From Nitrospira sp. (GTDB lineage: Bacteria; Nitrospirota; Nitrospiria; Nitrospirales; Nitrospiraceae), in NCBI GenBank assembly GCA_005116965.1, contig SWDG01000006.1, forward strand, positions 509,155-552,670: a stretch of DNA of 43,516 bases, given 5' to 3'. Of this stretch, positions 17,552 to 36,752 are shown piece after piece (the stretch's first letter is position 1; each line of letters starts with the position of its first letter). The notes below the pieces were generated by a model, which was not told the origin of the DNA, did no database searches, and saw nothing but the letters and a program-made list of their open reading frames with translations. The position numbers and the translations under genes are program-made.

Positions 17552-19648
17552 ATGGCACCAAAGAAAGAGTCCGCGTCAGATACTGAACCGAAATCTTCCG
17601 CTCCTCGATCTACCCCCGAACCAGCCGCAAAGACGAAAGCTGCCGCCAAGCCGGTGGAACGAGTCACTGCGGTTGAGATGGGGGCGCGTCAGCGGGAAAT
17701 TTCCGTCTCGGAGTTTTTCACGAAGAACCGGCACCTGCTCGGCTTCGACAATCCGCGCAAGGCGCTCTTGACCTGCGTCAAGGAGGCGGTCGATAACGCG
17801 CTTGATGCCTGTGAAGAGGCGGGAATTCTTCCGGATGTCACGGTCAAGCTGGAGGTGGTGTCGAACGGGGAGCCGGTGGCACCCAGCCAGGCGAGTCGAT
17901 TTCGTGTCACGGTGACGGACAATGGCCCCGGCATCGTTCGCCAGCAGATTCCTCGGATCTTCGCGAAGCTGCTCTACGGGTCCAAGTTTCATCGCTTGCG
18001 AATGAGCCGTGGGCAACAGGGCATCGGTATTTCCGCCGCCGGAATGTACGGACAACTGACGACCGGCAAACCGGTCAAAATTATTTCCCGAATTGGTCCG
18101 AAGGCTGCCGCGCATTTCTTCGAAGTCCAGATCGATACGAAGAAGAACGAGCCGTTGGTTCACGAGAATAAACAGATCGACTGGGAACAGCCACGAGGCA
18201 CGCAGGTTACGCTGGAAGTCGAAGGGAAGTATCAGAAGGGCCGCGCATCGGTCGATGAATGGCTGGAGCAAACCTCGATCGCCAATCCGCACGTCAGGCT
18301 GATCTATCACACGCCCGAAAAGGAAACGAAGGAATATCCGCGCACGTATCACGAGCTGCCGCCGCAGCCGCGTGAGATCAAGCCTCATCCATACGGCATC
18401 GAGTTCGGTATGTTGCTCAAGATGTTGCAGGACACGAAGAGCCACTCGGTTTCTGGCCTCCTCGCGACCGATTTTTGTCGGGTCTCTCCTCAGATGGCTG
18501 ACGAGATGTGCAAGGCGGCGAAGGTGTCGCCCGATGCCAAACCCCGTGAGTTGAAGGGGCCAGTGGCGGAGACGCTGTATAAGACATTACAAGAAACCAA
18601 GATCATGGCGCCGCCGACCAACTGCATTTCGCCGATCGGTGAGAAAGCGATCCTCTCAGGGCTCTACAAGCAGATCAAAGGTGAGTTTTATACGGCAGTC
18701 AGTCGGCCACCGGCGGTCTATCGAGGCAATCCTTTTATCATTGAGGCAGGGTTGGCCTATGGCAACAGGCCAGGGGATCATAATAAGCCACAGCAACCGG
18801 CTATGCCGAAGGCCGAAGGGGAGCATGAGGAAGAAGACTCAGAGCTCGCCCGCGTGATCCGCTATGCGAATCGGGTGCCGCTGCTGTACCAGCAATCGGC
18901 CTGTTCGACGTTCAAGGCCGTCCTGAGCACAAGTTGGAAAAACTATGGCTTGACGCAGTCTCGTGGGGCGCTACCCGGCGGGCCGATGGTGATCTTCGTG
19001 CATATGGCGTCGGTCTGGGTGCCGTTTACGAGCGAATCCAAGGAAGCGATTGCCGACTACGATGAGATCCAAAAAGAAATCACGCTGGCGCTTCGTGAGT
19101 GCGGCAGGCGGTTAGGACTCTTTATTCGTCGACGTGAACGGGCGGCCAGCGAATTTCGGCGACGGAATATTTTTGAGCTGTATATCGAGGAAGTCGTCGA
19201 CGCGTGTAATCGGCTCAAGGGCGGCACGTTGCCGAAGGAAAAGTTGAAGGCACAGCTCCAGAAGATTGCTACGTCTCGGACGGGTGGTCAGAAAACTGAT
19301 CAGGCGCTGGGGAAGACCAGCACGGGACCAGAAGGGTTGCCGCATTCGATTATCGTGACGGCGGATGGAATAGAAGGCGAGGCAGAATTGGCCACTCAGG
19401 TCGAGGCCGATCAGACGGCTGCGGCGCCCACGGCAGAATCGGAACTGCGTGATACTACACGGTCAGCTGACGGGCCTGGCTCGAAAGGAACATCCACCAA
19501 GGGGACGGGCGAGAAAACGTCGCCGAAGAAAACCACTGGGAAATCGGATCAGCTTGCGCTCCTTGCCGGACAGCCAATGGTCAAGAAGAAGTCAGGTGGA
19601 AAGTCTCTCAAGCCGGCGAAGAGCGCGGGCCCGCGCAAACCAAAATAG
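17552..19648 (+). CDS. top6B: DNA topoisomerase VI subunit B
   Basis: The ATPase subunit of type IIB topoisomerase, which uses ATP-driven dimerisation to pass one duplex through another. The 698-residue product has the GHKL ATP site: N-box EAVDNALDACEEA (Glu78, Asn82), DNGPGI (123-128) and the glycine-rich lid SRGQQGIGISAAGMYG (152-167). H2TH-like sequence (LLATDFCRVSPQMADEMC; NCISPIGEKAILSGLY) and the transducer domain follow. Archaeal relatives are shorter (about 530-640). The extra length lies in a basic N-terminal extension and a long Lys/Thr/Gly-rich C-terminal tail (about residues 560-698, ending KPAKSAGPRKPK). A GAGAGG ribosome site precedes the ATG. Subunit A follows after 6 bases. 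Confidence 0.95.
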   Translation: MAPKKESASDTEPKSSAPRSTPEPAAKTKAAAKPVERVTAVEMGARQREISVSEFFTKNRHLLGFDNPRKALLTCVKEAVDNALDACEEAGILPDVTVKLEVVSNGEPVAPSQASRFRVTVTDNGPGIVRQQIPRIFAKLLYGSKFHRLRMSRGQQGIGISAAGMYGQLTTGKPVKIISRIGPKAAAHFFEVQIDTKKNEPLVHENKQIDWEQPRGTQVTLEVEGKYQKGRASVDEWLEQTSIANPHVRLIYHTPEKETKEYPRTYHELPPQPREIKPHPYGIEFGMLLKMLQDTKSHSVSGLLATDFCRVSPQMADEMCKAAKVSPDAKPRELKGPVAETLYKTLQETKIMAPPTNCISPIGEKAILSGLYKQIKGEFYTAVSRPPAVYRGNPFIIEAGLAYGNRPGDHNKPQQPAMPKAEGEHEEEDSELARVIRYANRVPLLYQQSACSTFKAVLSTSWKNYGLTQSRGALPGGPMVIFVHMASVWVPFTSESKEAIADYDEIQKEITLALRECGRRLGLFIRRRERAASEFRRRNIFELYIEEVVDACNRLKGGTLPKEKLKAQLQKIATSRTGGQKTDQALGKTSTGPEGLPHSIIVTADGIEGEAELATQVEADQTAAAPTAESELRDTTRSADGPGSKGTSTKGTGEKTSPKKTTGKSDQLALLAGQPMVKKKSGGKSLKPAKSAGPRKPK

Positions 19649-19654
19649 GACATC

Positions 19655-20758
19655 ATGACGACCAAGACAAAGAAAACCACCGTGGTCGAGAAAAAACTGA
19701 TCAGCCTGGCGGACATTGTGATCCACGCAGCCGATCGTTCGAAAGATCCGACGTTTCAGATCCCGATCCGTGCCCTCTCGAATGTGTTCTTCAATGAAAA
19801 GAAGGGCCTCATCGAGATGGGAGCTAAGAAGCAGGAGCGGTCGTTTTTCAACGTCGGTATGGCGAAGAGATTTATGCAGACGATGCTGGTCGCCGATGCC
19901 CTCTCCGAGTTACAGCGGGCTGATCTCACCACCTCGCTTCGAGAAATTTACTACCGCACAAAACACACGATCAAAGATTCTCACGAGAATACCTTCGATG
20001 CGCAGGACGAATCCGATCCGGTCATTGAAGATCTAGAGGTGTCCCTCACGACGCTTCGAGAAGAGCTCCATGTCAGTGCAGAAAACAGAGGCAGTATCGT
20101 GGGGCCGGTAGTCTTCGGCGATGACGGCGATCGTGTCGATTGCTCGAAGTTGGGGAAAGGTGGGTACTCGGTCCCATCGATTGTTGAACCGGAGTATTTG
20201 GAGATCCGGCGATGTACGGCGGATTTCCTGCTGCTTGTCGAAAAGGGAACCCAGTGGAACCGGCTCTCGGAGGACAAGTTCTGGCGACGCTATAACTGCA
20301 TTCTCCTGACTGGAAACGGTCAGCCTCCTCGAGGTGTGCGGCGGTTGGCCTGTCGGCTGCACGAGGAACATCGGCTACCGGTCTATGTGCTGGTCGATAA
20401 CGATCCTTGGGGGTACTACATTTATTCCGTCGTCAAACAGGGCTCGATCAATTTGGCCTTCGAGAGCCAACGGATGGCCATTCCCAAGGCCAAGTTCGTG
20501 GGCCTGTCGAGTGCCGATCCGGAGCGCTACGAACTGCCGCGCAATGTCGGAATCAAACTGAATGAGAAGGATATCGCACGTGCCAAGGAATTGTTGAACT
20601 ACCAGTGGTTCCAAAAGCCAGCGTGGCAGGTGGAGATCAAGCGCATGCTCGTGAGCGGGCTGAAGTACGAACTCGACGCGCTGGCCAACAAGGATTTTCA
20701 ATACCTGACAAAGAAGTATCTGCCGAGGAAGCTCAAGGAAAAAGACTGGCTGGACTAA
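19655..20758 (+). CDS. top6A: DNA topoisomerase VI subunit A (Spo11-like)
   Basis: The DNA-cleaving subunit of topoisomerase VI. The 367-residue product has the CAP/winged-helix domain with the catalytic tyrosine motif SLREIYYRTKH (Tyr100, by analogy with Spo11, is the likely nucleophile). It also has a Toprim domain with Glu196 (LLVEKGTQWNRL) and the acidic pair in VLVDNDPWGYYIY (Asp248, Asp250), which bind Mg2+. The NGQPPRGVRRL loop between them is conserved. Length is normal. It lies 6 bases after subunit B, and the helicase gene follows 58 bases later. Together with subunit B it should form an A2B2 enzyme. Topoisomerase VI is typical of archaea and plants but patchy in bacteria. Confidence 0.95.
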   Translation: MTTKTKKTTVVEKKLISLADIVIHAADRSKDPTFQIPIRALSNVFFNEKKGLIEMGAKKQERSFFNVGMAKRFMQTMLVADALSELQRADLTTSLREIYYRTKHTIKDSHENTFDAQDESDPVIEDLEVSLTTLREELHVSAENRGSIVGPVVFGDDGDRVDCSKLGKGGYSVPSIVEPEYLEIRRCTADFLLLVEKGTQWNRLSEDKFWRRYNCILLTGNGQPPRGVRRLACRLHEEHRLPVYVLVDNDPWGYYIYSVVKQGSINLAFESQRMAIPKAKFVGLSSADPERYELPRNVGIKLNEKDIARAKELLNYQWFQKPAWQVEIKRMLVSGLKYELDALANKDFQYLTKKYLPRKLKEKDWLD

Positions 20759-20816
20759 CTGGCCTCCTATCTGTGCCATCATTGAGCCACCAACCGTCCG
20801 CGTGCATGAATCGGCT

Positions 20817-22376
20817 ATGAAGACCTTGCCTGCTTGGACTGCGCCGCTTCGCGATTGGCAGGGCCGTGCGCTCTCGGCAGTCCGTACCCATCAGACTAAA
20901 GATTTTCTGGCGATGGCGACTCCTGCCGCAGGCAAGACGCGTTTTGCCTTGCGCGTGGTGCATGAATATCTGGCGAAACAGGCCGCGGTCCGGGTGCTGG
21001 TCGTCTGCCCGACGAATCACCTCCGCACACAATGGTCGGATGCGGCGGGGAAGATCGGGTTGCAGCTTGATCCGGCTCTGACCAACGAACAAGCTGCGGA
21101 AGCGCCGGACTATCACGGCGCGGTGGTGACCTATCAGCAAGTCTGTCTGGCCCCGGAGATCTTTCAGCGGGTCTGCCAGAGCAAGAAAACGCTGCTCATC
21201 TTTGACGAGTTGCACCACGCCGGCGATGGAAAGAACTGGGGGAAGGCGCTGCGCTCGGCGTTCGAGCCGGCGGTGTTCCGACTGATTCTGTCCGGTACGC
21301 CCTTCCGCTCGGACAACAATCCAATCCCGTTTATTCAATATGAACAAGGAGAAAGCCGGGCGAATTTCGCGTATGGGTACACCGACGCGATTCGGGATAG
21401 CGTCTGCCGACCCATTGTCTTTCCGAGCTACGAAGGTGAGCTGAGTTGGCTGTCGGAAGGCCGTGAGCATCATGCCACGTTTGAAGACGGGCTGAAGTTC
21501 AACCGCCAGCGGGAACGCCTGAAGACGGCGCTGCTGCAAGACACGTGGCTTGGGCCAGTGATCACTGACGCCCATGCGCAACTGACACGCCTTCGGAAGG
21601 AGGAGCAACCGGATGCCGGCGGACTGATCGTCTGCATGGATCAGGACCATGCGCGCTGGGTGGCCGACCTGGTCGCCCGTATCACTGGGACAAAGGCCGA
21701 AGTAGCCGTTTCGGACGATCCTGCTGCCTCGCGCACCATTGAGGAGTTCGCTGGTCACAAAAAGCAGCAGTGGCTGGTGGCCGTCAACATGGTGAGCGAA
21801 GGCGTGGATATCCCTCGACTCCGTGTCGGCGTCTATGGCACGAACGTGATCACGGAAATGTATTTCCGTCAGGTGGTCGGCCGGTTCGTGCGGATGCAGG
21901 AAGGCCTGCCCAAACCGCAGCGGGCCTGGCTGTATCTGCCTAAAGATCCAGTCTTGGTGCACTATGCGAAGCAGATCAAGGCGGAACGCGATCATGTGCT
22001 GGAAGACATCATGCCGGCCGGGCAACGAGACCTCTTCGGCCGTGTGACGGTTTCGACCAACGAGTACATGCCGTTGATGGCCGTGGCCAGGATGGATAGC
22101 CTGATCGGCGAAGACGAGGCGAGAGGGGAGGGCGATGCGGCTGTTGTTGCTGAACCGACGGTCTCACTCCATGAGCAGAAACAAGATCTGCGGGATCTCC
22201 ACCGGTTGCTGGTCACCAGTCTTGCGAGAACGAGTGGCATCGATCATCGCCGGCTCAACGCAGAATTGATCGCCCGCACCGGCAGCCGCGTCGATCAAGC
22301 GACAACGGATCAGCTTCGGAAACGCATCCAACTGCTAGAGAAGTGGAAGGAGCATGGGTATGACGGGAAGCGATGA
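20817..22376 (+). CDS. Superfamily 2 DEAD/DEAH-type helicase
   Basis: A helicase or translocase of about 519 residues. Motif Q/I region RDWQGRALSAV and ATPAAGKTRFAL (Walker A), Ia CPTNHLRTQW, II LLIFDELHHAG (Asp-Glu-Leu-His), III LILSGTPFRSD, V NMVSEGVDIPRLRVGVYGT and VI MYFRQVVGRFVRMQ are all present, as in the type III restriction/UvrB-like SF2 group. The C-terminal part (about 120 residues after ERDHVLEDIMPAGQRDLFGR) has no recognised domain. I chose ATG 20817; a GTG at 20802 adds five residues. Neither has a good ribosome site. Tandem placement 58 bases after top6A suggests co-transcription and a shared role at topological or replication stress sites; that role is inference. Confidence 0.88.
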   Translation: MKTLPAWTAPLRDWQGRALSAVRTHQTKDFLAMATPAAGKTRFALRVVHEYLAKQAAVRVLVVCPTNHLRTQWSDAAGKIGLQLDPALTNEQAAEAPDYHGAVVTYQQVCLAPEIFQRVCQSKKTLLIFDELHHAGDGKNWGKALRSAFEPAVFRLILSGTPFRSDNNPIPFIQYEQGESRANFAYGYTDAIRDSVCRPIVFPSYEGELSWLSEGREHHATFEDGLKFNRQRERLKTALLQDTWLGPVITDAHAQLTRLRKEEQPDAGGLIVCMDQDHARWVADLVARITGTKAEVAVSDDPAASRTIEEFAGHKKQQWLVAVNMVSEGVDIPRLRVGVYGTNVITEMYFRQVVGRFVRMQEGLPKPQRAWLYLPKDPVLVHYAKQIKAERDHVLEDIMPAGQRDLFGRVTVSTNEYMPLMAVARMDSLIGEDEARGEGDAAVVAEPTVSLHEQKQDLRDLHRLLVTSLARTSGIDHRRLNAELIARTGSRVDQATTDQLRKRIQLLEKWKEHGYDGKR

Positions 22377-23411: not shown

Positions 23412-23885
23412 TTACCGCTGGCTTGCTGTTCGCCTCCGGGAGGAGGAAGGACGTCTGATAGGTCTCTTCGGATCGGGCATAAAGAGGTTGGGTGAGGCGT
23501 GGAAGCGAGTTGCAAGGTGTGTGATCTGACGGACGTTCAGGTCTCGCTTGCCGGAGAGAATTTCCGACACGACGCCCTGGCTGCCGATTTCTGGCAAGTC
23601 CGCTTGTGTGAGTCCATGTTCTTCCATCAACGTGCGGAGAATATCGGGAGCGGATGAGTCGGAGAAGGGGAGGTGGGCGTCCTCATACGCTTCGATAAAA
23701 AGGCCGAGCGTCTCGGCCAGGTCGGCCAGAGGATGGGTTTCTTGCTCGCCGATTTCGTCCACAATCGCATCAAGGATGCTCACCGCTTGGTGATATTCGA
23801 CCTCCGTCCGTAACGGAGCGAGTGGAATGCGTTGCCGAATGCGGAGGTAGTCGCTATTGGCTTCCTGAATGTATTTGGCGAGCAT
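23412..23885 (-). CDS. higA: HigA-type antitoxin with HTH domain
   Basis: A 157-residue antitoxin. The first half is helical (YLRIRQRIPLAPLRTEVEY...). The HTH domain is at about residues 87-135: LMEEHGLTQADLPEIGSQGVVSEILSGKRDLNVRQITHLATRFHAS, typical of the XRE/HigA type. It should bind both the toxin and the operator upstream of higB and repress the operon. It starts 3 bases after the higB stop, the toxin-first order characteristic of higBA. A short, basic C-terminal tail (RRPSSSRRRTASQR) is present. Its length of about 157 is normal for longer HigA proteins. Confidence 0.87.
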   Translation of the reverse strand: MLAKYIQEANSDYLRIRQRIPLAPLRTEVEYHQAVSILDAIVDEIGEQETHPLADLAETLGLFIEAYEDAHLPFSDSSAPDILRTLMEEHGLTQADLPEIGSQGVVSEILSGKRDLNVRQITHLATRFHASPNLFMPDPKRPIRRPSSSRRRTASQR

Positions 23886-23888
23886 GGC

Positions 23889-24176
23889 TCAGGTTCTCCA
23901 CGTGTTCCGGTCGTAGTCTGCGTGAGTCAGGATGTGCCGGATATACAGTTTCTTCCGATTGTAATGAATGGCTGCGACCAGCCGGAATTTGTTTCCTCCG
24001 ATGTTGAAGACGGTCAACCGATTTACCTGATCCGCCGAAGGGAAGGTCTTTCGTAGGTCGGCGAAAGAGGCATAGATGGTCTTGCGCACAATCGTGAACC
24101 AGTGCTGCAGTGAGGTCCGTGCTTCCGGATGAGTTCGCGCGAAGTCATCGAGGCGCTTTCGCGTGATCACATGCAC
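23889..24176 (-). CDS. higB: HigB-type mRNA interferase toxin
   Basis: A 95-residue toxin of the RelE superfamily, HigB branch. Characteristic features are HPEARTSLQHWFTIVRKTIYASFADLRKTFPSAD and the core NIGGNKFRLVAAIHYNRKKLYIRHILTHADYDRNTW, whose strands and basic/His residues form the ribonuclease site. HigB cleaves mRNA, usually on the ribosome. Its start is GTG 24176, right where the promoter's transcription start is predicted, with no ribosome site (see the promoter entry). higA follows after 3 bases. Confidence 0.88.
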   Translation of the reverse strand: MHVITRKRLDDFARTHPEARTSLQHWFTIVRKTIYASFADLRKTFPSADQVNRLTVFNIGGNKFRLVAAIHYNRKKLYIRHILTHADYDRNTWRT

Positions 24177-24576: not shown

Positions 24577-24786
24577 ATGGCTACCACCACGATTTCGTCC
24601 AAGTTTCAGGTCGTCATACCAAAGGAAGTCCGAGACAAACTACATTTGACACCGAGACAACGCTTGGTGGTTATTGAAAAGGGAGGCGTCATTACGCTTG
24701 TTCCAGAAGTGCCACTCAAATCGTTGAAAGGCGTACTCAAGGGAATGACGACGGGGGACGTGAGAGAGAAGCAGGACCGCGAATGA
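24577..24786 (+). CDS. vapB: AbrB/MazE-type antitoxin (VapB)
   Basis: A 69-residue swapped-hairpin AbrB-family DNA-binding protein. TTTISSKFQVVIPKEVRDKL is the classical AbrB/SpoVT N-terminal motif, followed by RLVVIEKGGVITLVP. The C-terminal tail (SLKGVLKGMTTGDVREKQDRE) is the expected toxin-binding extension. Start ATG 24577 follows AGGGAGG at good spacing. Its stop overlaps the vapC start by four bases (ATGA), so the pair is co-translated. Confidence 0.9.
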   Translation: MATTTISSKFQVVIPKEVRDKLHLTPRQRLVVIEKGGVITLVPEVPLKSLKGVLKGMTTGDVREKQDRE

Positions 24787-25154
24787 AAATCCTGTTGGAT
24801 TCCAGTGGGTGGATCGAATTCTTCACCGATGGCCCCAGGGCCAACCGGTATGCCGCCTATCTGACTCCACGGCACCATCTCATCACACCGACGATCGTGC
24901 TGTACGAAGTCTACAAGAAAATCAAACGAGAGCGAGGTGAGGAAACGGCTGTGCAGTTTGCCGGACGTCTCCATACGACCCACGTGATTCCATTGACGGA
25001 GTCGATTGCCTTGCTCGCTGCCGATCTGAGTCTCCAGCACGGACTCGCTATGGCTGATGCGATTGTGTATGCCACAGGACGAGATCAGGAGGCAGAGGTG
25101 GTCACAGGTGACGCAGACCTCGAGGGCTTGCCCGGTGTGGTGTATGTCAAATAG
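24783..25154 (+). CDS. vapC: PIN-domain toxin (VapC)
   Basis: A 123-residue PIN-domain ribonuclease. The acidic metal-binding residues are visible: Asp6 in LLDSSGW, Glu in VLYEVYKK, Asp in GLAMADAIVYATG, and Asp in VVTGDADLEGLPGVVYV. VapC toxins cut initiator tRNA or rRNA. The preceding antitoxin gene overlaps it by four bases. Length is normal. The gene ends just before the IS30 remnant on the opposite strand. Confidence 0.9.
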   Translation: MKILLDSSGWIEFFTDGPRANRYAAYLTPRHHLITPTIVLYEVYKKIKRERGEETAVQFAGRLHTTHVIPLTESIALLAADLSLQHGLAMADAIVYATGRDQEAEVVTGDADLEGLPGVVYVK

Positions 25155-25184
25155 GGGATCAGTGGGCGGTTTCAAGTTCCAAGT

Positions 25185-25589
25185 TTCCAGGGGCGTGGCA
25201 AAGTCGAAACATTTTCTGGGGCGCGTATTCAGCCGATGGGCAATGGCATTTAGCTCACGCTGCGTGTAGCCCGACAGATCTGTGCCCTTGAGCAGGTACT
25301 GACGCAGCAACCCATTGGTATTCTCGTTGATGCCGCGTTGCCACGGCGCATGCGGATCGGCAAAGAAGATCTGAAGCGAGAGTCGCTGGACTAACTGCTC
25401 GTGCTCGGCCATTTCTTTCCCCCGATCATAGGTCAGCGTCTTGCGCAACAGTGCAGGCACATGCCGGATTTTTTTCGTGAACCCCTTACGAACACTTCGC
25501 GCATCCGTCCCGTCCATTTTGGCCAGCAGAACCAGACGCATCGTCCGCTCCACCAAGGTCCCGAAGGCCGAGCCATTGCGCGCCCCCTT
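25185..25589 (-). pseudogene. IS30-family transposase remnant (integrase core, C-terminal part)
   Basis: On the minus strand an open stretch reads KGARNGSAFGTLVERTMRL, then LTYDRGKEMAEHEQL, FFADPHAPWQRGINENTNGL and LNAIAHRLNTRPRKCFDFATP. This is the DDE integrase core of IS30 transposases, including the catalytic Asp of YDRG and the later Glu of the NEN motif. The N-terminal half with the HTH and first catalytic Asp is missing, and after ATPLE the sequence runs into unrelated DNA. No inverted repeats were found, so this is a non-mobile relic. Confidence 0.88.
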
Positions 25590-27093: not shown

Positions 27094-27858
27094 CTATTTA
27101 CTGAGGCTTCCCAGAAATGTGACGACGTGGCCCCGTAGGGCGGCCACGAAGCGTTGGAAATTCAGGTCTTCAGCTGGCTGCGTGATTTTTGTTTTTGTGG
27201 AGTTCGTGGCCATCATGAAACAGGCTGAGGTATAAAGGCGCTCTAACACCAGGCGGCGACACAGAAGTTCGTAGCGCTTGCTGTAGGAGACGCCTTTGTA
27301 CCGCCGGAGGGCTGCTGTATCCTGGAAATGTGCTTCGCCACGGAACTCAGGGTCTACTTGGAAGTATGGTTCCTTGTTGGCAACAGGGATTTTGACATTG
27401 TCACGATCTTCTAAGAGGAACAGATAGCCAAGAAAAGGAGGAGGCGCTTGACCGAAGCGGCCTTCTCGGAAGGCTGTCCAAATATCTTTGGCGCTGCCCA
27501 CCGCTTCTTCCGAACGATTGTTCACATTGTTGCCGATCGACTTGCCGGCTTGGGACTTAAACTCCATGGCCAAGACCAGAGTGCCGTTGGAGACGACGAT
27601 GAGATCCCATTTTTTCGTGGCTCTGAAGTACCCCGGTAGCTCAAGCGCGGTTCTTGTGCGGATATCGACCTTCTCCAATCCGGCTTCGCACAGAATGTCC
27701 GAAACCAAGACTTCCAGGGCACCCATCTGGGTCCCTCCAGTCACCTCACCTCTGGTTCCGGCATCGATTTTCCCTGACTGAACCTGCTTCTCTTTATTTT
27801 TCCTGCGGGCGTTCCAGTAGCTTTGGACGGCGGTTTGCAATCTCTTATCAATGTTCAA
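27094..27858 (-). CDS. PaeR7I/XhoI-type restriction endonuclease (predicted site CTCGAG)
   Basis: A type IIP restriction enzyme of 254 residues; PaeR7I and XhoI are about 246. The catalytic PD-(D/E)XK core is TKKWDLIVVSNGTLVLAMEF followed by KSQAG, giving Asp85, Glu99 and Lys101. SIGNNVNNRSEEAVG follows as in PaeR7I. I chose the TTG at 27858, preceded by GGAGG at ideal spacing, instead of the longer frame (27930). This gives family length and an 11-base overlap with the methyltransferase stop, coupling restriction to methylase translation. Specificity CTCGAG is inferred from family and would need confirmation. Confidence 0.9.
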   Translation of the reverse strand: MNIDKRLQTAVQSYWNARRKNKEKQVQSGKIDAGTRGEVTGGTQMGALEVLVSDILCEAGLEKVDIRTRTALELPGYFRATKKWDLIVVSNGTLVLAMEFKSQAGKSIGNNVNNRSEEAVGSAKDIWTAFREGRFGQAPPPFLGYLFLLEDRDNVKIPVANKEPYFQVDPEFRGEAHFQDTAALRRYKGVSYSKRYELLCRRLVLERLYTSACFMMATNSTKTKITQPAEDLNFQRFVAALRGHVVTFLGSLSK

Positions 27859-29557
27859 GCGCGACCTCCAGCGTGTGAGCGGTGATTCCATAGAGATCCA
27901 ACGCTGCTTGGGTTGCGCGGGTCCTGTCACGAAGACGGAAGGCGTCTCTCAATTCATGGGACTGGATCTTCGACAAGGACTTTGGCGCAGGGACGCGGAT
28001 ACGGCGCAGGTACTGCGCTTGGAAGCGTAGGTAGCCGCCTCGCATGCGGACTCCATAGGATTCGACAAAAAACTGTCCCACCTTCGACAGTAGGATGCCA
28101 CCGAGTACCTCCAGGTCCCATTCATCCGACTGAATGAAATACAGATTATGGTGAGGATATGTTTCGCCTCGATCTAAGACCGGCTCGAGGGTGTTCTTGA
28201 TATCTGGAACATACAGTTTGTGTGTATGGGTGAGCGTGTGGGTGACGCGGTCAATCGTCTTGTACCATTTGTCGGCGCTTTTCTCCGCAGTGTGGCGTTT
28301 CTTCAGGGCTTCGGCATGTCGTTCGTAGTAGGCCTGCAACTTAGGATAGGGCTTCAGATTGACCAGCCCATCGTGGTTCCATGGATTCACGAGATAGTGT
28401 CCGGACCACCGCACCGTTCCGTCCGTCAGATCTTTCGCAAGGGCAAGCTTCAGCAGGCGGGAAGGCTCTACCAGGTCTGCATCTGTTGTGATGTAGACTC
28501 GATCGTTCCCCGTAGCCACGCCGATCCCAACCTTGGCATTCATTTCAAGGGGAGGAAACTGATCTTCTAGCCGTCGAAGGAGTGCCAGTTGTTCCGGCGA
28601 ATGGCAGGGCCAGGGATCTGATCCTTTGAACCATGTATGTACGACGGCTCGATGGATGCTCTGGGGCAAGATGGTTTGGCTGGTTGTCTGGAGCGTTGTT
28701 GCCAATTGTCCTGGTTGAATGTTTTCAGCATCCTGATCAGCGCTTGCCACAATGGTGGATTGCTGTTTTGCGTGCCGAATCACCGTGATAGCGGGATAGG
28801 CGTCTACTTCATCATCAAAGGCATTGGCGTGGTGCATACTGAGGAGCATCTCGACGCTGTACGCCGAACTAATCAGTTGGCGCAGTTCAGCCCCATATTG
28901 GTTACGCATCCATCGATCTGCGCAGATGAAGGCGCAAACACCGCCCGTTTGCAACTGCCGGAGTGCGGCTTCGAAGAACGCCACATAGAGGTCGGCACGA
29001 CCTCGCATCGTTGGATACGCACTCCGGTAGACCGAGGCGATCTCTTCCGGAATATCCTCAAGGCGCACATACGGAGGATTTCCAATAATAAAATTGGCCT
29101 GTCTGTGGTTGGCGTCGAGAAGGTAGTCTCTGTTTCGCACCCATGTATCGGCCAATCGCCTTGCCAGAGCGTTGGGTGCGCCGTGGTGAATCAGAATCTC
29201 TTGGGCAGTCGCGCGCGCGCGCGCCGCGCTATCCTCATCTAGCTCATAGGCCAGCAGGGAATTGTGGCATTCTGACAGCGATCGACCAAGGTTTCCACAC
29301 GACTGTACGAGGCGCTCAATCATGGGACCGAGAAACGCGCCATCGCCAGCTGCTGGTTCGATGGCCAGGCTGTCCACTAAGTTGGTATTCGAGCAATAGC
29401 CGCTCAAGTCCAGAAGTAGTTCAACGACCCAACGCTTTGTGTAGACGACCCCTTTTGGTTCAGCTGCTGATACAGGAGGTGGACGTCGGAGAGGCGCGAT
29501 CAACGGAAGCTGTATCCCTCGTGTTAAGACTGATGGACTAAAATGGTTGTCTGACAC
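27848..29557 (-). CDS. N6-adenine DNA methyltransferase of the PaeR7I/XhoI system
   Basis: A 569-residue amino-methyltransferase that protects the host site. It has the SAM-binding motif AIEPAAGDGAFLGP (residues 66-79) and the catalytic NPPY (FIIGNPPYVRLEDI, residues 157-168), which defines the gamma-type adenine class. A target-recognition part follows, with aromatic-rich sequence toward the C-terminus (GGILLSKVGQFFVESYGVRMRG). A (GC)n tract at 29210-29224 encodes residues near 112-116. The order methylase first and endonuclease second, overlapping, lets modification precede cutting. No controller (C) gene was seen. Confidence 0.93.
   Translation of the reverse strand: MSDNHFSPSVLTRGIQLPLIAPLRRPPPVSAAEPKGVVYTKRWVVELLLDLSGYCSNTNLVDSLAIEPAAGDGAFLGPMIERLVQSCGNLGRSLSECHNSLLAYELDEDSAARARATAQEILIHHGAPNALARRLADTWVRNRDYLLDANHRQANFIIGNPPYVRLEDIPEEIASVYRSAYPTMRGRADLYVAFFEAALRQLQTGGVCAFICADRWMRNQYGAELRQLISSAYSVEMLLSMHHANAFDDEVDAYPAITVIRHAKQQSTIVASADQDAENIQPGQLATTLQTTSQTILPQSIHRAVVHTWFKGSDPWPCHSPEQLALLRRLEDQFPPLEMNAKVGIGVATGNDRVYITTDADLVEPSRLLKLALAKDLTDGTVRWSGHYLVNPWNHDGLVNLKPYPKLQAYYERHAEALKKRHTAEKSADKWYKTIDRVTHTLTHTHKLYVPDIKNTLEPVLDRGETYPHHNLYFIQSDEWDLEVLGGILLSKVGQFFVESYGVRMRGGYLRFQAQYLRRIRVPAPKSLSKIQSHELRDAFRLRDRTRATQAALDLYGITAHTLEVALEH
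29210..29224. repeat. Alternating CG tract inside the methyltransferase gene
   Basis: 15 bases of strict C/G alternation (about seven CG units) code for the ARARA stretch near residue 114 of the methyltransferase. Dinucleotide slippage here would shift the frame. Confidence 0.7.
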
Positions 29558-29786: not shown

Positions 29787-30053
29787 ATGCCAAACATTAC
29801 GTTGCTTGTGTCGCCCAGTTGTGGAGCCTGTCCATCGGCCAAAAGTCTGTGGAAACAGTTACGCGTGAAGTACAGCTTCTCCTATCGTGAAGTGGATATC
29901 ACCACGAAAGACGGCCAGGAGCTGGCCGACCGTCATTCTGTTCGTGCCGTGCCGGCGACGATCATCGATGGGCGCCTGACGTTCGTCGGTGTTCCGAGTC
30001 GAGAAAGCGCGGAGAAGGCCATTCAATTGAAGATCAAACAACGAGAAGGGTAG
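29787..30053 (+). CDS. Thioredoxin/glutaredoxin-fold small protein
   Basis: An 88-residue protein with the redox motif SPSCGACPSAKSLWKQL (CGAC active site, residues 11-14) right after the first strand (NITLLVS). EVDITTKDGQELADRHSVRAVPATIIDG follows, in which the cis-proline (VPAT) faces the active site, and a final helix ends it. I chose ATG 29787, which fits the fold; the frame continues upstream to a TTG. It probably reduces disulfides or transfers electrons to an unknown partner. The zinc-ribbon gene starts 7 bases after its stop, so the two are likely co-transcribed. Confidence 0.85.
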   Translation: MPNITLLVSPSCGACPSAKSLWKQLRVKYSFSYREVDITTKDGQELADRHSVRAVPATIIDGRLTFVGVPSRESAEKAIQLKIKQREG

Positions 30054-30232: not shown

Positions 30233-33200
30233 ATGTTGCAGGTTGTCACGGGTCGCTTTCATCCTACTCTTGAATCTGCTCTCGTCCATCGACTCACACG
30301 CGTCAAGGCGACTGATCCGCTTGCGCCGATCGCGATCTTCGTTCCGTCCAAGCCACTCGCCGATCGCCTTCGCACCGTTCTCGCTGTCGAACACCGGCTG
30401 TCGCTCTTCAACGTACACGTCTTGACCTTCCATCAACTGGCCCTGCGGCTGGCTGGAGACGTACGGGTCGACCACCCACTGCCGCGGGTCGTTGACGAGC
30501 TCTTCTTTGAACAACTCGTCCGTCACATTGTTCACAGCAAACTCACCAGCCAGGCTCCGTTGCAACGAATCGGACAATCCTCTGGGACGTGGGGCGCGCT
30601 CTGGGCGACGATCCGTGATTTAAAGGATGCCGGCGTCGATGCTGCGCAAGCGCTGCAAGGTCTCCGTGAAGGCTATTTCGAAGATGACGATCGGGAGTGG
30701 CTCGGCGCGCTCCTGTCGCTCTATGCGGCCGTGAAGGAAGCGGGCAAGACCCTCGGGGTTGGGACGCAAGACGATCTGGCCGAAGCCCTCATCCCGTTCA
30801 TTCCGACTGCTACGTTTCTCCAGCCGTTGAAGGCCGTGTTCTATTATGGGTTCTATGACCTGACGCAGGTGCAGGTGTCCCTCTTTGAAGCGATCAGCCG
30901 TGCGAAGGACACGACCTTGTTTTTTCCGTTGGAGGGTGACCCGGCGTTTGGGTTTGCTCGGCGCTTTTTTGATCGCCATATCCAGTCGCTGGTAATGTCG
31001 GACGATGCGCCGATCCGGCTGGAACAGGAATCGTCAACGGTGGCGCACGATCACGCCCAACTCACCATACGGAGCGTGATCGGCGCGGAAGAAGAATTGG
31101 CGGCAACCTGCCGAACCATTCTCGATCTGATCGAAACCAACGGGTATCGATTCGATGAAATCGGCGTCACCGCCCGGACACTCGATCCCTATAGCCTGTA
31201 TCTTCAGTCGAGTTTCGATCGCCATCGGATTCCCTTTCGTACGACGGCATCGAGGCCGTTGATTCAGGAACCGATCTGCAAGCTGGTGTTGCAGTTAGCC
31301 TCCCTGCCGCTGAACGATTTGTATCGCACGTCAGTCCTCGATGTTGTGACGTCTCCGCTCTACGCCACTGATCTGTACGACGAAAGATCAACGTCGTACC
31401 GGCCGGAACAGTGGAAGCTGCTGGTGCAAGCACTACACATCACTCACGGAGTTGAAGCGTGGAAACGGCTGGAGCGGGCGAGCCAAGCTGCATTGGTGCT
31501 CGATGGCGAGGAGAGCGTTGTCGGCTCTCTGGCTATTGCTTCGGAAGTGATCAGCTTGCTCTGGCAGGTGGTCTCACAGCTCACGCAAGCCTGTTCGGCC
31601 CTGCCATCGCGAGGCACGATCGGTCAGATGGTCACAGCTTGTCGAGCACTCATTGAGCGGCACCTGCGTCGGCCAGATGCAGCCGTATCAACTACCGACA
31701 CCGACGATGGTCCGCTTGCTCGCCACGCGATGACATGGGATGTGATCGACCGTATCTGGACGACGCTCATAGAATTGGAGCCGCTCAACGAGGAGATGAC
31801 CTGGGCCGAATTTGTTGAGCTGTTGACCTATACCTTCGAGCGCACGACGATCCCTCTCCACGATGGTTCATCTCAGGGCGTGATGGTATGTGACGTGATG
31901 GCGGCCCGCGGAGTGCCGTTCAAAGTCCTGTTCGTCCTCGGGCTAAACGAAAAAGTGTTTCCGCGCTATATTCGTGAAGATGCGTTTCTGCGCGATCGTC
32001 ATCGGCGCGTGCTCGACGCCACGCTGGGATTTAAGATCGATGAGAAGCTGATGGCCTACGGAGAAGAGACCTTGCTCTTCCGCCTATGTTGTCAGGCTCC
32101 CACGCAGCGACTCTACTTGTCCTATCAACGGGCCGATGAATCTGGTCGCATGCTGGCCGCCTCTCCGTCTCTCGGAGACGCGCGCCGTCGGTTCGGCCAG
32201 GATGAGCAGCCGATCGATGTGGTGCCTCGTCGTCTGACGGATCGAGTCTCACAACAGCCAACGATTACACGATTCCTGCCGCCGGCTGAACTGACTCAGT
32301 GGGTGGCCATGAACGGGCAAGACCCGACCAATCTGGTACGGGCGCTCGGGCGTGATGCGGAGACGTTCCAGCATGCAGCGATGGCGCTTGATCGAATCGA
32401 AGAAGACGGCGCGACGCTGAATCTCTTTGATGGGATGACTGGGACGGTCGAATCTCATTGGGTGCGACTTATCGAACGGGGTCTCGCTCCGACGCCGCTC
32501 GAACGGTATGCGCGCTGTCCGTTCCAATATTTTTCCGCAGATGTGCTGCGACTTGAGCCGAGCCGGGTTGCGATGTCGCAGGAGCCAGATGCGGCGCTGA
32601 TAGGGACGCTCTGCCACGCAGCATTGCGGTGTTGCTATGAACAGCTCGTGCAGGCCGGGTGGCCAACTCGACAAGTGGCGGACGACATGATGGACCAGAC
32701 GATTCGCGCATCGGTGGAACAGGCGGCGGCAGACCTGGAGTCACAACATCGAACAGGCCACTATCTACTGTGGGAGTTGGCGAAAGAACAGATCGTAGCG
32801 TTGGTGATCGCGGCGGTGAAGGCGGACGAGGAGGAACAGGCCGAGCATCCGTACCAGCCCATTGCATTTGAAGTGGACGGTGAAGGGACGATTCCTGGAG
32901 TCCTCGACGAGGGATTGTTGAAGATCCGTGGTCGCATTGATCGTCTTGACCGGAACCGGTCCTCCGGCACGATGCGCGTACTCGATTACAAGTTCAAAGT
33001 CGGCTCAGCGATGAAACCGGAAGACCGGAACTTGACCCAGTCGGCGGTCCGTGGGTATCGGCTGCAGCCACCGCTCTATAGCTGTCTCACGGTTCCTGGA
33101 CAGTCTACTCCGAGCCAGGTGCAGTTCCTGTTTCTCGCTCCTCGGTGGTCACCGACGATCAGCCGTTCGAGTTTTGATACGATGTCGTGGTCCTCTGATA

Positions 33201-33409
33201 CCGGGGTACTGATTCAGAACACGGTGAGAACGCTCGTGGACGGCATCCGTACCGGACGCTTTTTCATTCTTCCAGACGGCTATTGCGATAGCTGTGACTT
33301 TCGTGTGGCTTGCCGGCGAGAACATGCGCCGACGTGGTGGAGGGCCTATCGCGCGGCCGAGCCGAAAACGTTGAAGATGCTTCGTGCGCAAAAAGTTGCC
33401 GATGAGTAA
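30233..33409 (+). CDS. addB: AddB-like subunit of a helicase-nuclease (RecB-type nuclease with Fe-S motif)
   Basis: A 1058-residue protein related to AddB of the AddAB double-strand-break repair enzyme. The C-terminal RecB-type nuclease is visible: RGRIDRLDR, then MRVLDYKFK with the catalytic Asp/Lys. Four cysteines at 762, 1018, 1021 and 1027 (RYARCPFQYF and YCDSCDFRVACRRE) match the AddB iron-sulfur pattern. The N-terminus reads VVTGRFHPTLESAL where an ATP-binding P-loop would lie; the GxGKS/T signature is absent, so this half is probably not an active motor. SF1-like helicase-fold sequence fills the middle (VMAARGVPFKVLFVLGLNEKVFP). The AddA-like gene overlaps its end by eight bases. Confidence 0.85.
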   Translation: MLQVVTGRFHPTLESALVHRLTRVKATDPLAPIAIFVPSKPLADRLRTVLAVEHRLSLFNVHVLTFHQLALRLAGDVRVDHPLPRVVDELFFEQLVRHIVHSKLTSQAPLQRIGQSSGTWGALWATIRDLKDAGVDAAQALQGLREGYFEDDDREWLGALLSLYAAVKEAGKTLGVGTQDDLAEALIPFIPTATFLQPLKAVFYYGFYDLTQVQVSLFEAISRAKDTTLFFPLEGDPAFGFARRFFDRHIQSLVMSDDAPIRLEQESSTVAHDHAQLTIRSVIGAEEELAATCRTILDLIETNGYRFDEIGVTARTLDPYSLYLQSSFDRHRIPFRTTASRPLIQEPICKLVLQLASLPLNDLYRTSVLDVVTSPLYATDLYDERSTSYRPEQWKLLVQALHITHGVEAWKRLERASQAALVLDGEESVVGSLAIASEVISLLWQVVSQLTQACSALPSRGTIGQMVTACRALIERHLRRPDAAVSTTDTDDGPLARHAMTWDVIDRIWTTLIELEPLNEEMTWAEFVELLTYTFERTTIPLHDGSSQGVMVCDVMAARGVPFKVLFVLGLNEKVFPRYIREDAFLRDRHRRVLDATLGFKIDEKLMAYGEETLLFRLCCQAPTQRLYLSYQRADESGRMLAASPSLGDARRRFGQDEQPIDVVPRRLTDRVSQQPTITRFLPPAELTQWVAMNGQDPTNLVRALGRDAETFQHAAMALDRIEEDGATLNLFDGMTGTVESHWVRLIERGLAPTPLERYARCPFQYFSADVLRLEPSRVAMSQEPDAALIGTLCHAALRCCYEQLVQAGWPTRQVADDMMDQTIRASVEQAAADLESQHRTGHYLLWELAKEQIVALVIAAVKADEEEQAEHPYQPIAFEVDGEGTIPGVLDEGLLKIRGRIDRLDRNRSSGTMRVLDYKFKVGSAMKPEDRNLTQSAVRGYRLQPPLYSCLTVPGQSTPSQVQFLFLAPRWSPTISRSSFDTMSWSSDTGVLIQNTVRTLVDGIRTGRFFILPDGYCDSCDFRVACRREHAPTWWRAYRAAEPKTLKMLRAQKVADE

Positions 33410-36400
33410 CGATCTCCTGATACCGGATCGGATGGCGCGCGAGTCGGCCGAAACGACATTCGATCGCAATGTCGTTGTTGTGGCAGGGGCAGGGACAGGC
33501 AAGACGACGTTGCTTGTGAATCGCCTCGTGTATCTGCTGATGAAGGAACCCGCTCCGGTCTTGATCACGCAGGTCGTCGCCTTGACCTTCACCAACAAGG
33601 CGGCGACCGAAATGAAAGTCCGGCTGCGCGAGCGACTCGTGGTGCTTGCTCGCCCGGAGGCCGATCCGGTGCGATCAGGCGACGGAGGGGCTGTCTCGCG
33701 GGAGGATCTGCGAGATCGTTATGGACTCAGCGCTGATGCGATTGCCGCGCGTGCACAGGCAGCACTCAGCGATCTCGAAAAGGCTCAGATTGGCACCCTT
33801 CATAGTTTCGCCGCACACCTGTTGCGACTCCACCCGCTGGAGAGCGGAGTCGATCCTGATTTCAAGGAAGACGACGGTTTACGATTTGAAGAACAATTCA
33901 CTGCAGCGTGGGATTGCTGGCTCGACCAGGAATTGAGCCGAGCCGGACAACAGCATCGCCTCTGGCGATCGGTCTTGTCATCGACCACTCTTGAAACGGT
34001 CAGAACGTTGGCCCGGTCTTTGTGCAGCGAATTGATCGACCTCGATACGCTGCAACAACAACTCGCATCCACAGCGGTGCCACCGGTTGTCTTGAGTTGG
34101 ATTCAACATATGGGAGACCGGGCGGAGCAACTTTTGAAGGCATACGATCGACCAAAGCGCCGGAAGGTCGAGCACATGCTCGCCGCTGCGGCGTCGTTGA
34201 TGCGCCTCATGGCAGAAAATGGGTTACCAGGGCGGCAAGGCCTGGCGATGGAAGAGCGAGAATGGTTCGGCAAGGATCTTGGAAGCGCCGTGGGTGGGTG
34301 GGAGAAAGGTGATTTCAAAGAGGCTGCTGCGCTCATCCAGACGGCGCAACAGCTTTTGGCGGTCGACCATGTATTCTTGAACGATCTCGTGACGCTGCTC
34401 ATACCGCTGGTGCGGAACATCCGAGAGACCTTTGCTCGGCAGGGCTGGATTTCGTTTGATGGGTTGCTGGCACGGGCACGGACACTGCTCCTCGAACATC
34501 CGTCGGTCCGTGAACGGATTAAGCGGGACTATCGAGCCGTGTTAGTCGATGAATTTCAGGACACAGACCCGGTGCAGTACGAGATCATCCTTGCGGTCTC
34601 GGAGCGGCAGGGGAACCAGGCGGCTCACTGGCACGCGATGGCGCTCGAACCGGGAAAACTCTTCATTGTGGGAGACCCCAAACAGTCGATCTATGCCTTT
34701 CGGCGAGCCGATATCGAAGCGTTCGACCGCGTTGTGGAAAAGGTTACGGTGGACGGTGGAGTGGCTCAGACGTTGACCACGAACTTCCGGAGCGATGTGG
34801 CCGTGTTAGAGCCGGTGAATGAGGTCTTCGATCGGTTGTTCGAACGACAGCCGCTGGTCCAGCCAGCGAATGTTCGATTGGAGGTGCGACCTCAACGGCG
34901 TCAGGCGTCAATCGAACCGGGCGTTCGTCTCAGTGTGACCACGCCGGATGGTGAAGCTGAGACATTTGATGCGGCAGGGGCGACGAGAGCCGAGAGCGAA
35001 GTGCTGGCTCGTTGGCTGAACGACGAGGTCCTGAGTCGCCCTTCCGTGAAGCCGGGACATATCGCGTTGCTCTTCAGAAAACTTACGCAAGCCGATGCCT
35101 ACCTCGATGCCTTGCGCCGGCACGATATTCCCTACGTCATCGAGGGGGAAAAGCATTTCTATCGTCGTCAGGAGGTGATCGACCTCGTGAATCTGCTGCG
35201 GGTCTTGGATCATTCTCATGACGAAATCGCGTTAGCCGGTCTCCTTCGCTCACCACTTGGAGGGTTAACGGATCGGGAGCTCTATGAGCTCAAGCAGGCG
35301 GGGCATTTCAATTATCTCCATGCCGTGAGTCTTGAGTCGTGGTCCCATGCCTGCGCGGTTGCTGTTCGGCGGCTGTACGACCACCTGGCGTGGCTGCACC
35401 GGGCTATCGCCATGCTGCCATTGGCCGAGGCCATCGCGCTGATGTTTGACCGATTGCCGATCCTGGATCTGGCGGCGGCATCGCTCCATGGCGAACAGGC
35501 CGTGGCCAACCTCCTGAAAGTCAAACAGACGGCTGCGTCATTGGCCGACCGGCCCCACATGACCTTGAGCGGATTTGTGGAGCTCATGATTGCCCGCCTT
35601 GATGACCAACCGGACGAATCGGAGAGTCCTCTCGCCGAGGAGTCGCTCGAAGCCGTGCACGTGTTGACGATTCATAAGGCCAAGGGGTTGGAATTCCCCA
35701 TTGTTGTGCTGCCGGGCCTTCACCAAGGGAGCGGGCGGGAGCGAAGCGTGCCACAGATTTCCTATGATTGGTCGAGTGGCATCTATGGTCTCTCCCTCGA
35801 CCGTCATCGGTCCCTCGGTTCGTTGCTGGTCCAGCACAAACTGCGGCTGCGAGAAGAAGCGGAACGGCGACGCGTGCTCTATGTGGGGATGACCAGGGCC
35901 AAAGAGTTGTTGCTGTTGTCAGGAGGGATCACCGGCCGCTCAATCGGCGAAACGGTCTTTGACCTGCTGCAGAACATCGGCACGGGGGAGATCGGAACAG
36001 CCTCGACGGAGGCTTTGACAATCGGGGCCAGCGCGATTCCCCATCGAGTGATCAAGGCACCGGAACGAAAGCGGCCACGCCGACGTTCGGACAGAACAGC
36101 CAGTGAGGGGTTGATTAATCCAGAAGAGATTGCGGAGCGGTGGGAGAGCAGGACCGCTCGATGGACCGAAGTTCGTGAGACCTCCCATCATCTGACACCG
36201 ACGACGCTGGGTAAACAATCGGCGCGGGTTGTGTGTGAAACGACTTCAGTTCGACAGGATGCCGCGGTTGGGCGGTTGGCTGGTGTGGTGGCTCATCGTC
36301 TGCTTGAACGATGGGACTTTTCACAGGACCCCTCTGGGTTATGTGCGCAGGTAGTCGTAGCCGTACAGGCAACCCTTGAACCGGACGACCAGCCTCAGGC

Positions 36401-36752
36401 TGAAGCCGTCGCTGAATCCGTGACCGATCTTCTTGCGACGTTCGGTTGCTCGGAAGCCTATGAACGTCTCCGGTCGTCCCAAATCATTGGCCGAGAAGTC
36501 CCTTTCGTCATGCCGTGGGGTAACAGGCAGGTCATGGAAGGAGTGATCGACCTGATCTACCGGCTGGATGGAGAGCTGTGGGTGGCTGACTATAAAACGG
36601 ATGCGATATCAGCCGATCAGGCGGTGGCTCGTGCAGAGCAGTATCGCACACAGAGTGAGGTCTATAAAGTCGCGGTCCAACAAAGCTTAGGCATCGACTC
36701 AGTTCGCTTCCACTGTCTGTTTCTGCGATGTGCGATGGCCGTGGAGTTATAG
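33402..36752 (+). CDS. addA: AddA-like UvrD-family helicase-nuclease
   Basis: The motor subunit of the AddAB-type complex, of about 1116 residues. All SF1A motifs are present: I VVAGAGTGKTTLLVNR, Ia LTFTNKAATEMKVRL, II VLVDEFQDTDPVQYEI, III GDPKQSIYAFRRADI, IV TLTTNFRSD, V TIHKAKGLEFPIVVLPG and VI RRVLYVGMTRAKELL. The C-terminal RecB-like nuclease shows EGVIDLIYRLDGELWVADYKTD. With its partner it should resect duplex ends and load RecA. I chose ATG 33402, eight bases inside the AddB stop; an upstream ATG (33384) is less likely. No chi-type recognition can be predicted from sequence. Confidence 0.93.
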   Translation: MSNDLLIPDRMARESAETTFDRNVVVVAGAGTGKTTLLVNRLVYLLMKEPAPVLITQVVALTFTNKAATEMKVRLRERLVVLARPEADPVRSGDGGAVSREDLRDRYGLSADAIAARAQAALSDLEKAQIGTLHSFAAHLLRLHPLESGVDPDFKEDDGLRFEEQFTAAWDCWLDQELSRAGQQHRLWRSVLSSTTLETVRTLARSLCSELIDLDTLQQQLASTAVPPVVLSWIQHMGDRAEQLLKAYDRPKRRKVEHMLAAAASLMRLMAENGLPGRQGLAMEEREWFGKDLGSAVGGWEKGDFKEAAALIQTAQQLLAVDHVFLNDLVTLLIPLVRNIRETFARQGWISFDGLLARARTLLLEHPSVRERIKRDYRAVLVDEFQDTDPVQYEIILAVSERQGNQAAHWHAMALEPGKLFIVGDPKQSIYAFRRADIEAFDRVVEKVTVDGGVAQTLTTNFRSDVAVLEPVNEVFDRLFERQPLVQPANVRLEVRPQRRQASIEPGVRLSVTTPDGEAETFDAAGATRAESEVLARWLNDEVLSRPSVKPGHIALLFRKLTQADAYLDALRRHDIPYVIEGEKHFYRRQEVIDLVNLLRVLDHSHDEIALAGLLRSPLGGLTDRELYELKQAGHFNYLHAVSLESWSHACAVAVRRLYDHLAWLHRAIAMLPLAEAIALMFDRLPILDLAAASLHGEQAVANLLKVKQTAASLADRPHMTLSGFVELMIARLDDQPDESESPLAEESLEAVHVLTIHKAKGLEFPIVVLPGLHQGSGRERSVPQISYDWSSGIYGLSLDRHRSLGSLLVQHKLRLREEAERRRVLYVGMTRAKELLLLSGGITGRSIGETVFDLLQNIGTGEIGTASTEALTIGASAIPHRVIKAPERKRPRRRSDRTASEGLINPEEIAERWESRTARWTEVRETSHHLTPTTLGKQSARVVCETTSVRQDAAVGRLAGVVAHRLLERWDFSQDPSGLCAQVVVAVQATLEPDDQPQAEAVAESVTDLLATFGCSEAYERLRSSQIIGREVPFVMPWGNRQVMEGVIDLIYRLDGELWVADYKTDAISADQAVARAEQYRTQSEVYKVAVQQSLGIDSVRFHCLFLRCAMAVEL

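What the first reader, a model, noticed from the sequence alone, without database searches (positions are those of the whole stretch)
17552..22376. Topoisomerase VI B-A genes linked to an SF2 helicase in a bacterium
Both topoisomerase VI subunits look catalytically complete: the GHKL ATP site in B, the tyrosine and Toprim acidic residues in A. They are followed after 58 bases by an SF2 helicase gene. Topoisomerase VI is an archaeal/plant enzyme that is rare and patchy in bacteria. A helicase partner could feed it substrates, for example to unlink replication or repair intermediates. The joint role is inference; the order and motifs are seen directly.
Basis: partly seen in the sequence, partly recalled or inferred. 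Interest (0 to 1): 0.62.

Follow-up and report, generated by a model that had tools for sequence, protein, structure and literature searches.

The report
Topoisomerase VI operon with added helicase
A Nitrospira-type bacterium carries a complete archaeal-style DNA-untangling enzyme whose two genes are followed, throughout the sampled genus but almost never in sister genera, by a gene for a DNA-motor protein of a phage-like family, which hints at (but does not prove) a shared job in chromosome upkeep.

Summary
top6B (17552-19648), top6A (19655-20758) and an SF2 helicase (ATG 20817-22376; 58-bp gap) lie in one direction with catalytic motifs present. In the window's genus the helicase follows top6A by 12-249 bp in 39 of 40 sampled genomes (37 intact). 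Elsewhere in the family 25 sampled genomes carry both genes, and 1 has them adjacent. The linkage is therefore a derived, roughly genus-level feature, and each gene also occurs without the other. A wider, looser neighbour is addBA: downstream of top6A on the same strand, 0.6-28 kb away, in 53 of 69 topo VI genomes of the family. The genome has gyrase and no second GyrA/ParC homolog, so topo VI can serve as second type II topoisomerase; but all 10 family genomes lacking topo VI also show one such homolog. The helicase core resembles RadD/XPB; relatives occur in viral contigs, where 29 of 53 examined carry an HNH-like N-terminal motif absent here. Most likely: ordinary bacterial topo VI whose operon gained a RadD-like DNA translocase in one Nitrospira clade. 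Co-transcription and interaction are untested. Topo VI in Nitrospira is published; the helicase and AddAB neighbourhood did not turn up in my searches.

The parts
17552..19648 (+). top6B, topoisomerase VI subunit B (GHKL ATPase, transducer); C-terminal tail beyond the matched region
   Evidence: NCBIfam over cut-off, Pfam; alignment to 2q2e_B
19655..20758 (+). top6A, topoisomerase VI subunit A (cleavage tyrosine, Toprim)
   Evidence: NCBIfam over cut-off, Pfam TP6A_N and Toprim; alignment to 2zbk_A
20759..20816 (.). 58-bp spacer between top6A and helicase; no run of five T, no terminator-like site on the + strand in the consensus scan
20817..22376 (+). SF2 DNA helicase/translocase, RadD/XPB-like core plus C-terminal three-helix part (first in-frame GTG at 20802)
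   Evidence: Pfam ResIII, DEAD; phrog_16; model pLDDT 81.3 and fold matches
29787..30053 (+). small thioredoxin/glutaredoxin-like gene; stands before addB in 15 of the 17 loci where my gene caller found addB
   Evidence: gene-order clusters, Pfam Thioredoxin_3 4.2e-11
30233..33409 (+). addB-like helicase-nuclease subunit; same-strand downstream neighbour of top6BA in much of the family
   Evidence: NCBIfam AddB matches below cut-off; synteny
33384..36752 (+). addA/recB-like subunit
   Evidence: NCBIfam RecB/AddA matches below cut-off

Best explanation
A bacterial topoisomerase VI operon (top6B-top6A) works as the cell's second type II topoisomerase beside gyrase, passing one duplex through another to unlink daughter chromosomes and recombination intermediates. 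In an ancestor of this Nitrospira clade a chromosomal SF2 helicase gene was placed directly behind top6A, on the side of addBA, and has been kept there as the third gene. The helicase is most likely a RadD-like ATP-driven duplex-DNA translocase acting on branched repair or replication intermediates. Its position gives shared expression with topo VI and, probably, work on the same substrates. Shown: gene content, motifs, linkage and its distribution, purifying selection, fold resemblance, absence of a second GyrA/ParC homolog. Inferred: vertical descent and the direction of the move, co-transcription, decatenase role in vivo, translocase activity, and any physical or functional partnership.
For: Linkage in 39 of 40 genus genomes at 12-249 bp (match to match) on the same strand, while the stretch between helicase and addB ranges from about 0.65 to 27 kb where both lie on one contig (coordinates; G199, with addB in the other direction, left out). 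B-A-helicase contiguous in 39 of 40 named Nitrospira contigs, although flanking genes vary: the WD40 gene upstream is within 1 kb in 23 of 31 contigs, DUF3817 downstream within 3 kb in 21 of 29. dN/dS 0.04-0.08 for the helicase against 12 contigs. Linked helicases fall together in the tree (90/64), with the unlinked copies of two sister-genus genomes just outside. The only GyrA/ParC homolog found in the genome has the GyrA C-terminal propeller and a QRRGGKG box, beside dnaA, dnaN and gyrB. RadD is the top fold match, Z 22.4, 332 residues, 20% identity. addBA lies downstream on the same strand in 53 of 69 topo VI genomes of the family.
Against: The helicase is unlinked in 24 of 25 non-genus family genomes with both genes, and each occurs without the other. 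All 10 family genomes lacking topo VI also show a single GyrA/ParC homolog. The genus-level conservation is best seen as one event with common descent, not 39 independent ones. Support for the linked clade is moderate (90/64). By sequence the best curated matches are to defence-type helicases: PADLOC PbeA 2.8e-24 and NCBIfam Dnd-system restriction enzyme 1.4e-18, far below cut-off. My loose terminator scan gave weak hits in 11 of 39 spacers, against 20 of 38 behind the helicase.
Confidence: 0.53

Rival explanations
1. The helicase is a neighbour only. A mobile or relocated gene landed behind top6A once, took advantage of its promoter, and has been kept because it is useful by itself; it has no joint function with topo VI.
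For: Helicase present without topo VI in G108, G246, G143 and three genomes of family f2, and away from top6A in 24 genomes; in fetched g2/g4 loci it sits among ordinary genes such as peptide release factor 3, inorganic pyrophosphatase and a DEAD-box RNA helicase (Pfam on one example each); relatives found in 67 viral-collection loci.
Against: No gene-sized insertion between top6A and the helicase in 39 genus genomes, although the next interval downstream is widely variable.
Confidence: 0.33
2. The locus is a defence island: topo VI, the phage-like helicase, AddAB and the nearby restriction genes act against foreign DNA.
For: Helicase core resembles PbeA of PADLOC (83.7 bits, 2.8e-24) and the Dnd-system restriction enzyme model (67 bits, cut-off 600); HNH-like motif in 29 of 53 viral relatives and HNH in a plasmid relative; XhoI-type restriction genes, HigB-type toxin gene and an IS30 piece between helicase and addB in the window.
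Against: No dndC match in the genome, as a phosphorothioation system would need (recalled); no PADLOC match for B, a marginal one for A (0.0034); topo VI is present in 69 of 79 and the helicase in 67 of 79 sampled family genomes rather than patchy; the window's restriction genes have no counterpart in the 53 relative loci clustered.
Confidence: 0.08
3. Topo VI makes controlled double-strand breaks, Spo11-like, that AddAB and the helicase process into recombination.
For: Downstream position of addBA in 53 of 69 family genomes; Spo11 is a Top6A relative (PMC11302465, part 1 of the Discussion).
Against: B keeps the ATPase and switch motifs, as expected of strand passage; addBA is often kilobases away with other genes between.
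Confidence: 0.04

Closest known systems
Topoisomerase VI (solved chains 2zbk and 2q2e; in bacteria, Nitrospira moscoviensis per PMC11302465)
   Same: Both subunits, catalytic motifs; NCBIfam cut-offs passed
   Different: In this genus a helicase gene follows; B has a tail of roughly 110-150 residues beyond the matched region
RadD (YejH) of E. coli
   Same: Top fold match over residues 7-412 (Z 22.4, 20% identity); SF2 core
   Different: 24.8 bits against a family cut-off of 720; its last cysteine is residue 273, so no C-terminal zinc ribbon (a zinc ribbon is reported in the abstract start of PMC9049331; its C-terminal place is recalled); three-helix C-terminal part instead
Phage/plasmid SF2 helicases of phrog_16 type, some with N-terminal HNH
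   Same: 31-44% identity in the 39 viral rows aligned, up to 48% over longer matched stretches and 54% over one short one
   Different: Nitrospirota copies aligned lack the HNH part and are chromosomal
PbeA / Dnd-system restriction helicases
   Same: Helicase core, 83.7 bits to PbeA, 67.1 bits to TIGR04095
   Different: Match starts at profile position 252 of 672 for PbeA, so its N-terminal part is missing here; far below the TIGR04095 cut-off of 600; no dndC in the genome
Archaeal XPB-II
   Same: Sequence match 1.9e-9 over residues 15-172; fold Z about 19
   Different: Only the common core; Bax1 partner gene not searched for

Membership tests
Topoisomerase VI | B subunit passes curated family cut-off and keeps GHKL N, G1, G2 motifs and switch lysine | tested here: met
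Topoisomerase VI | A subunit passes cut-off and keeps cleavage tyrosine and Toprim E, DxD | tested here: met
Topoisomerase VI | A2B2 complex with ATP-dependent duplex passage | not testable with these tools
   needs purified protein
RadD | Curated RadD model cut-off | tested here: not met
   24.8 bits against 720; no gene of the genome passes
RadD | C-terminal zinc ribbon | tested here: not met
   no cysteine after residue 273 of 519
SF2 helicase (ResIII/DEAD type) | Motifs I, II, III, V, VI in a two-domain RecA-like core | tested here: met
Type I/III restriction R subunit | Nuclease domain in the protein | tested here: not met
   no nuclease family at 0.01 in Pfam; restriction models of NCBIfam below cut-off
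Type I/III restriction R subunit | Partner methyltransferase gene | not tested
   an Eco57I-type methyltransferase lies about 5.5 kb away in the window but was not checked as a partner
Phosphorothioation (Dnd/Pbe) restriction | dndC in the genome | tested here: not met
   no match at 0.001 in the genome, 99.2% complete; the other dnd and pbe genes were not searched
AddAB | Curated AddA/AddB cut-offs | tested here: inconclusive
   best matches are AddB/AddA/RecB but below cut-off

The most novel reading that the evidence does not exclude
Topo VI, the RadD-like helicase and AddBA form one chromosome-unlinking and break-repair module in Nitrospira, in which the helicase drives branched intermediates to a form that topo VI can unlink: a bacterial accessory factor for topo VI, of which I know none.
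Probability: 0.15. Interest if true: 0.65.

Novelty: new variant of a known kind. Interest (0 to 1): 0.38.

Why it matters
The role of topo VI in bacteria is stated as open (PMC11302465, part 1 of the Discussion). One family, with topo VI present, topo VI lost, helicase linked, helicase unlinked and helicase lost among relatives, is a natural experiment for that question, and the helicase is a concrete candidate accessory factor.

Tried and rejected
Topo VI as a simple replacement for topo IV: not a rule for this family, since the 10 of 79 sampled family genomes without an intact top6A (top6B searched and absent in all 10) also show one GyrA/ParC homolog; the sister family f2 shows two PF00521 matches in 18 of 18 and has no topo VI (I did not check that the second is ParC). 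In f1, G256 showed no PF00521 match, and G234 and G254 showed two; I did not resolve whether these are assembly effects.

Helicase as RadD: rejected as a membership claim (below cut-off, no zinc ribbon), kept as 'works like'. Helicase as restriction subunit: no nuclease domain found.

Viral origin of topo VI: no match in phage records; the one IMG/VR hit (L206) also carries a gene that reads as transketolase and looks like bacterial DNA (by eye); no helicase match in its fetched 7.9 kb.

First AlphaFold model from 14 near-identical rows was poor (pLDDT 53.6) and was dropped; the second, 44 rows with 39 viral relatives, gave 81.3. My first gene caller missed known genes, apparently by calling antisense ORFs, and was replaced. 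The terminator scan in spacers was too loose to decide.

Literature: among the papers listed (titles and abstract starts) I saw none on a helicase or AddAB beside bacterial topo VI; some searches listed only a part of their hits, and the library holds open-licence papers only. PMC11302465: abstract, section 14, part 1 of the Discussion, and passages; its text holds no 'helicase' and no 'operon'. PMC9348778 and PMC12684718: passages only. RadD papers: search listing and abstract starts only.
Full report
What is there. The window lies at G000:C6:509155-552670 of a 3.73-Mb genome, 99.2% complete; its nearest named relatives are Nitrospira MAG contigs. top6B (17552-19648), top6A (19655-20758) and an SF2 helicase gene (ATG 20817, or GTG 20802, to 22376) follow each other on the + strand. 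B and A pass curated NCBIfam cut-offs and keep the catalytic motifs against solved topo VI chains. In loci from relatives 72 of 73 A rows and 70 of 73 B rows could be counted; all departures from my patterns keep the key residues, except that three class-level B proteins have DYGPGI for DNGPGI.

Distribution. Top6A was sought in 295 Nitrospirota genomes: 74 match, namely 69 intact in family f1 (of 79 f1 genomes), one remnant (G159) and 4 in other families of the class. The helicase was sought in the same 295: 70 match at 1e-30, that is 39 of 40 genus genomes, 28 other f1 genomes and 3 of family f2. In f1 the two co-occur in 64 genomes (counting the split G222 and remnant G105 helicases); topo VI alone in 5 (G165, G163, G193, G212, G236); helicase alone in 3 (G108, G143, G246); neither in 7. 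These are related genomes, so I give no probability.

Linkage. In the genus the helicase follows top6A on the same strand by 12-249 bp, match to match, in 39 of 40 genomes; 37 are intact, one is in two frames (G222), one is a 98-residue remnant (G105), and G165 has none. Of the 25 other f1 genomes with both genes only G187 has them adjacent (312 bp); in 10 they are far apart on one contig and in 14 on different contigs. Among 40 named contigs B-A-helicase is contiguous in 39; the fortieth (L079) starts inside the helicase. Those contigs were found with this helicase as query and may include the same species as the G genomes. Flanking genes are less constant: WD40 upstream within 1 kb in 23 of 31 contigs with enough flank, DUF3817 downstream within 3 kb in 21 of 29.

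Wider neighbour. addB was found in all 79 f1 genomes and not in G181. It lies downstream of top6A on the same strand in 53 of 69 topo VI genomes (31 of 40 in the genus, 22 of 29 outside), 0.6-28 kb away; in 15 it is on another contig and in G199 elsewhere on the contig. It was not seen near top6BA in the four class-level loci, as far as their fetched flanks reach, so I take it as old only within the family. A small thioredoxin-like gene stands before addB in 15 of 17 loci (Pfam). In the genus the helicase stands between top6A and addBA. In G159 a top6A remnant remains beside addB. The interval between helicase and addB is about 0.65-27 kb, which looks like an insertion hotspot; in the window it holds a HigB-type pair, an IS30 piece and an XhoI-type restriction pair.

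Evolution. In the helicase tree (45 chosen rows) the linked copies group together (90/64) with the unlinked copies of G149 and G153 as sister (100/100 for the joint group) and g2/g4/g11 copies outside. The Top6A tree (41 rows) has the genus plus g7 as one group (85/90). This fits one relocation near the base of that clade; whether G149/G153 never had the linkage or lost it is open. No species tree was built. dN/dS of the window against 12 contigs: helicase 0.04-0.08, A 0.01-0.05 (one value undefined), B 0.07-0.13; several dS values exceed 1.

The helicase. Pfam ResIII and DEAD; phrog_16 DNA helicase 4.6e-28; PADLOC PbeA 2.8e-24; NCBIfam Dnd-system restriction enzyme 1.4e-18 but far below cut-off. 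The genome has no dndC match. Relatives occur in 67 IMG/VR loci (59 recovered with the window protein at 1e-5), 82 plasmid records and 2 phage records. Of 53 viral loci examined, some of them near-duplicates, 29 have an HNH-like motif just upstream in frame (pattern of my own); Pfam finds HNH in a Streptomyces plasmid relative (4.9e-9) and a sub-cut-off piece in phage PIS136. Nitrospirota copies aligned lack it. Among viral models the best is a phage 'SSL2' helicase at 1.3e-33, 26%. The C-terminal three-helix part (451-513) was not searched alone.

Type II topoisomerases. The genome's only PF00521 match is GyrA, with the GyrA C-terminal propeller and a QRRGGKG box, beside gyrB, dnaN and dnaA. 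Allen and Maxwell (PMC11302465, section 14) already report topo VI without topo IV for Nitrospiraceae, represented by N. moscoviensis. In the phylum sample one PF00521 match is the state of 76 of 79 f1 genomes, with or without topo VI, while f2 has two in 18 of 18. G181, a topo VI genome of family f9, has two. So topo VI can serve as second type II enzyme, but its presence is not what allows the lack of topo IV.

Mechanism and its limits. The likeliest reading is a standard topo VI acting as decatenase, with a RadD-like translocase kept under the same promoter because both act on replication or recombination intermediates. Transcription, activity and interaction are untested. The main rival, a neighbour without joint function, is hard to exclude because the genus-wide linkage probably goes back to one event.

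Verdict. Observation confirmed; topo VI here is a known kind; the genus-wide helicase linkage and the wide addBA neighbourhood were not found in the listings; interest moderate.

Noticed in passing
window 27094-29557, - strand: XhoI-family restriction endonuclease (Pfam 7e-70) next to an Eco57I-type methyltransferase (with sub-cut-off BREX PglX similarity), between the helicase and addB.
   Followed up: partly
window 23412-24176, - strand: HigB-type toxin gene (Pfam 1.9e-29) beside a helix-turn-helix gene (sub-cut-off match), a likely toxin-antitoxin pair; both also match in relative L041.
   Followed up: no
window 24606-25556, - strand: IS30 family transposase matching only the C-terminal part of the model, so probably a remnant.
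   Followed up: no
L139-L195 (IMG/VR loci): A family of viral SF2 helicases, 29 of 53 examined with an HNH-like N-terminal motif; PHROGs names the one tested (L189) only as DNA helicase.
   Followed up: partly
L097, L098, L099: Top6B of class-level relatives has DYGPGI in place of DNGPGI in the ATP-site G1 motif, an Asn to Tyr change.
   Followed up: no
G060, G127, G143 and 7 more family genomes: Both topo VI subunits missing (or a short top6A remnant, G159) with a single GyrA/ParC homolog: apparent gyrase-only relatives.
   Followed up: partly
L206: IMG/VR contig with top6B and top6A at 58% and 55% identity, separated by a small ORF, beside an ORF that reads as transketolase: probably bacterial DNA in a viral collection.
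   Followed up: partly
L113 (G151): A second, 53% identical helicase copy in one genome, within a run of short same-strand genes; my impression is a mobile element.
   Followed up: no
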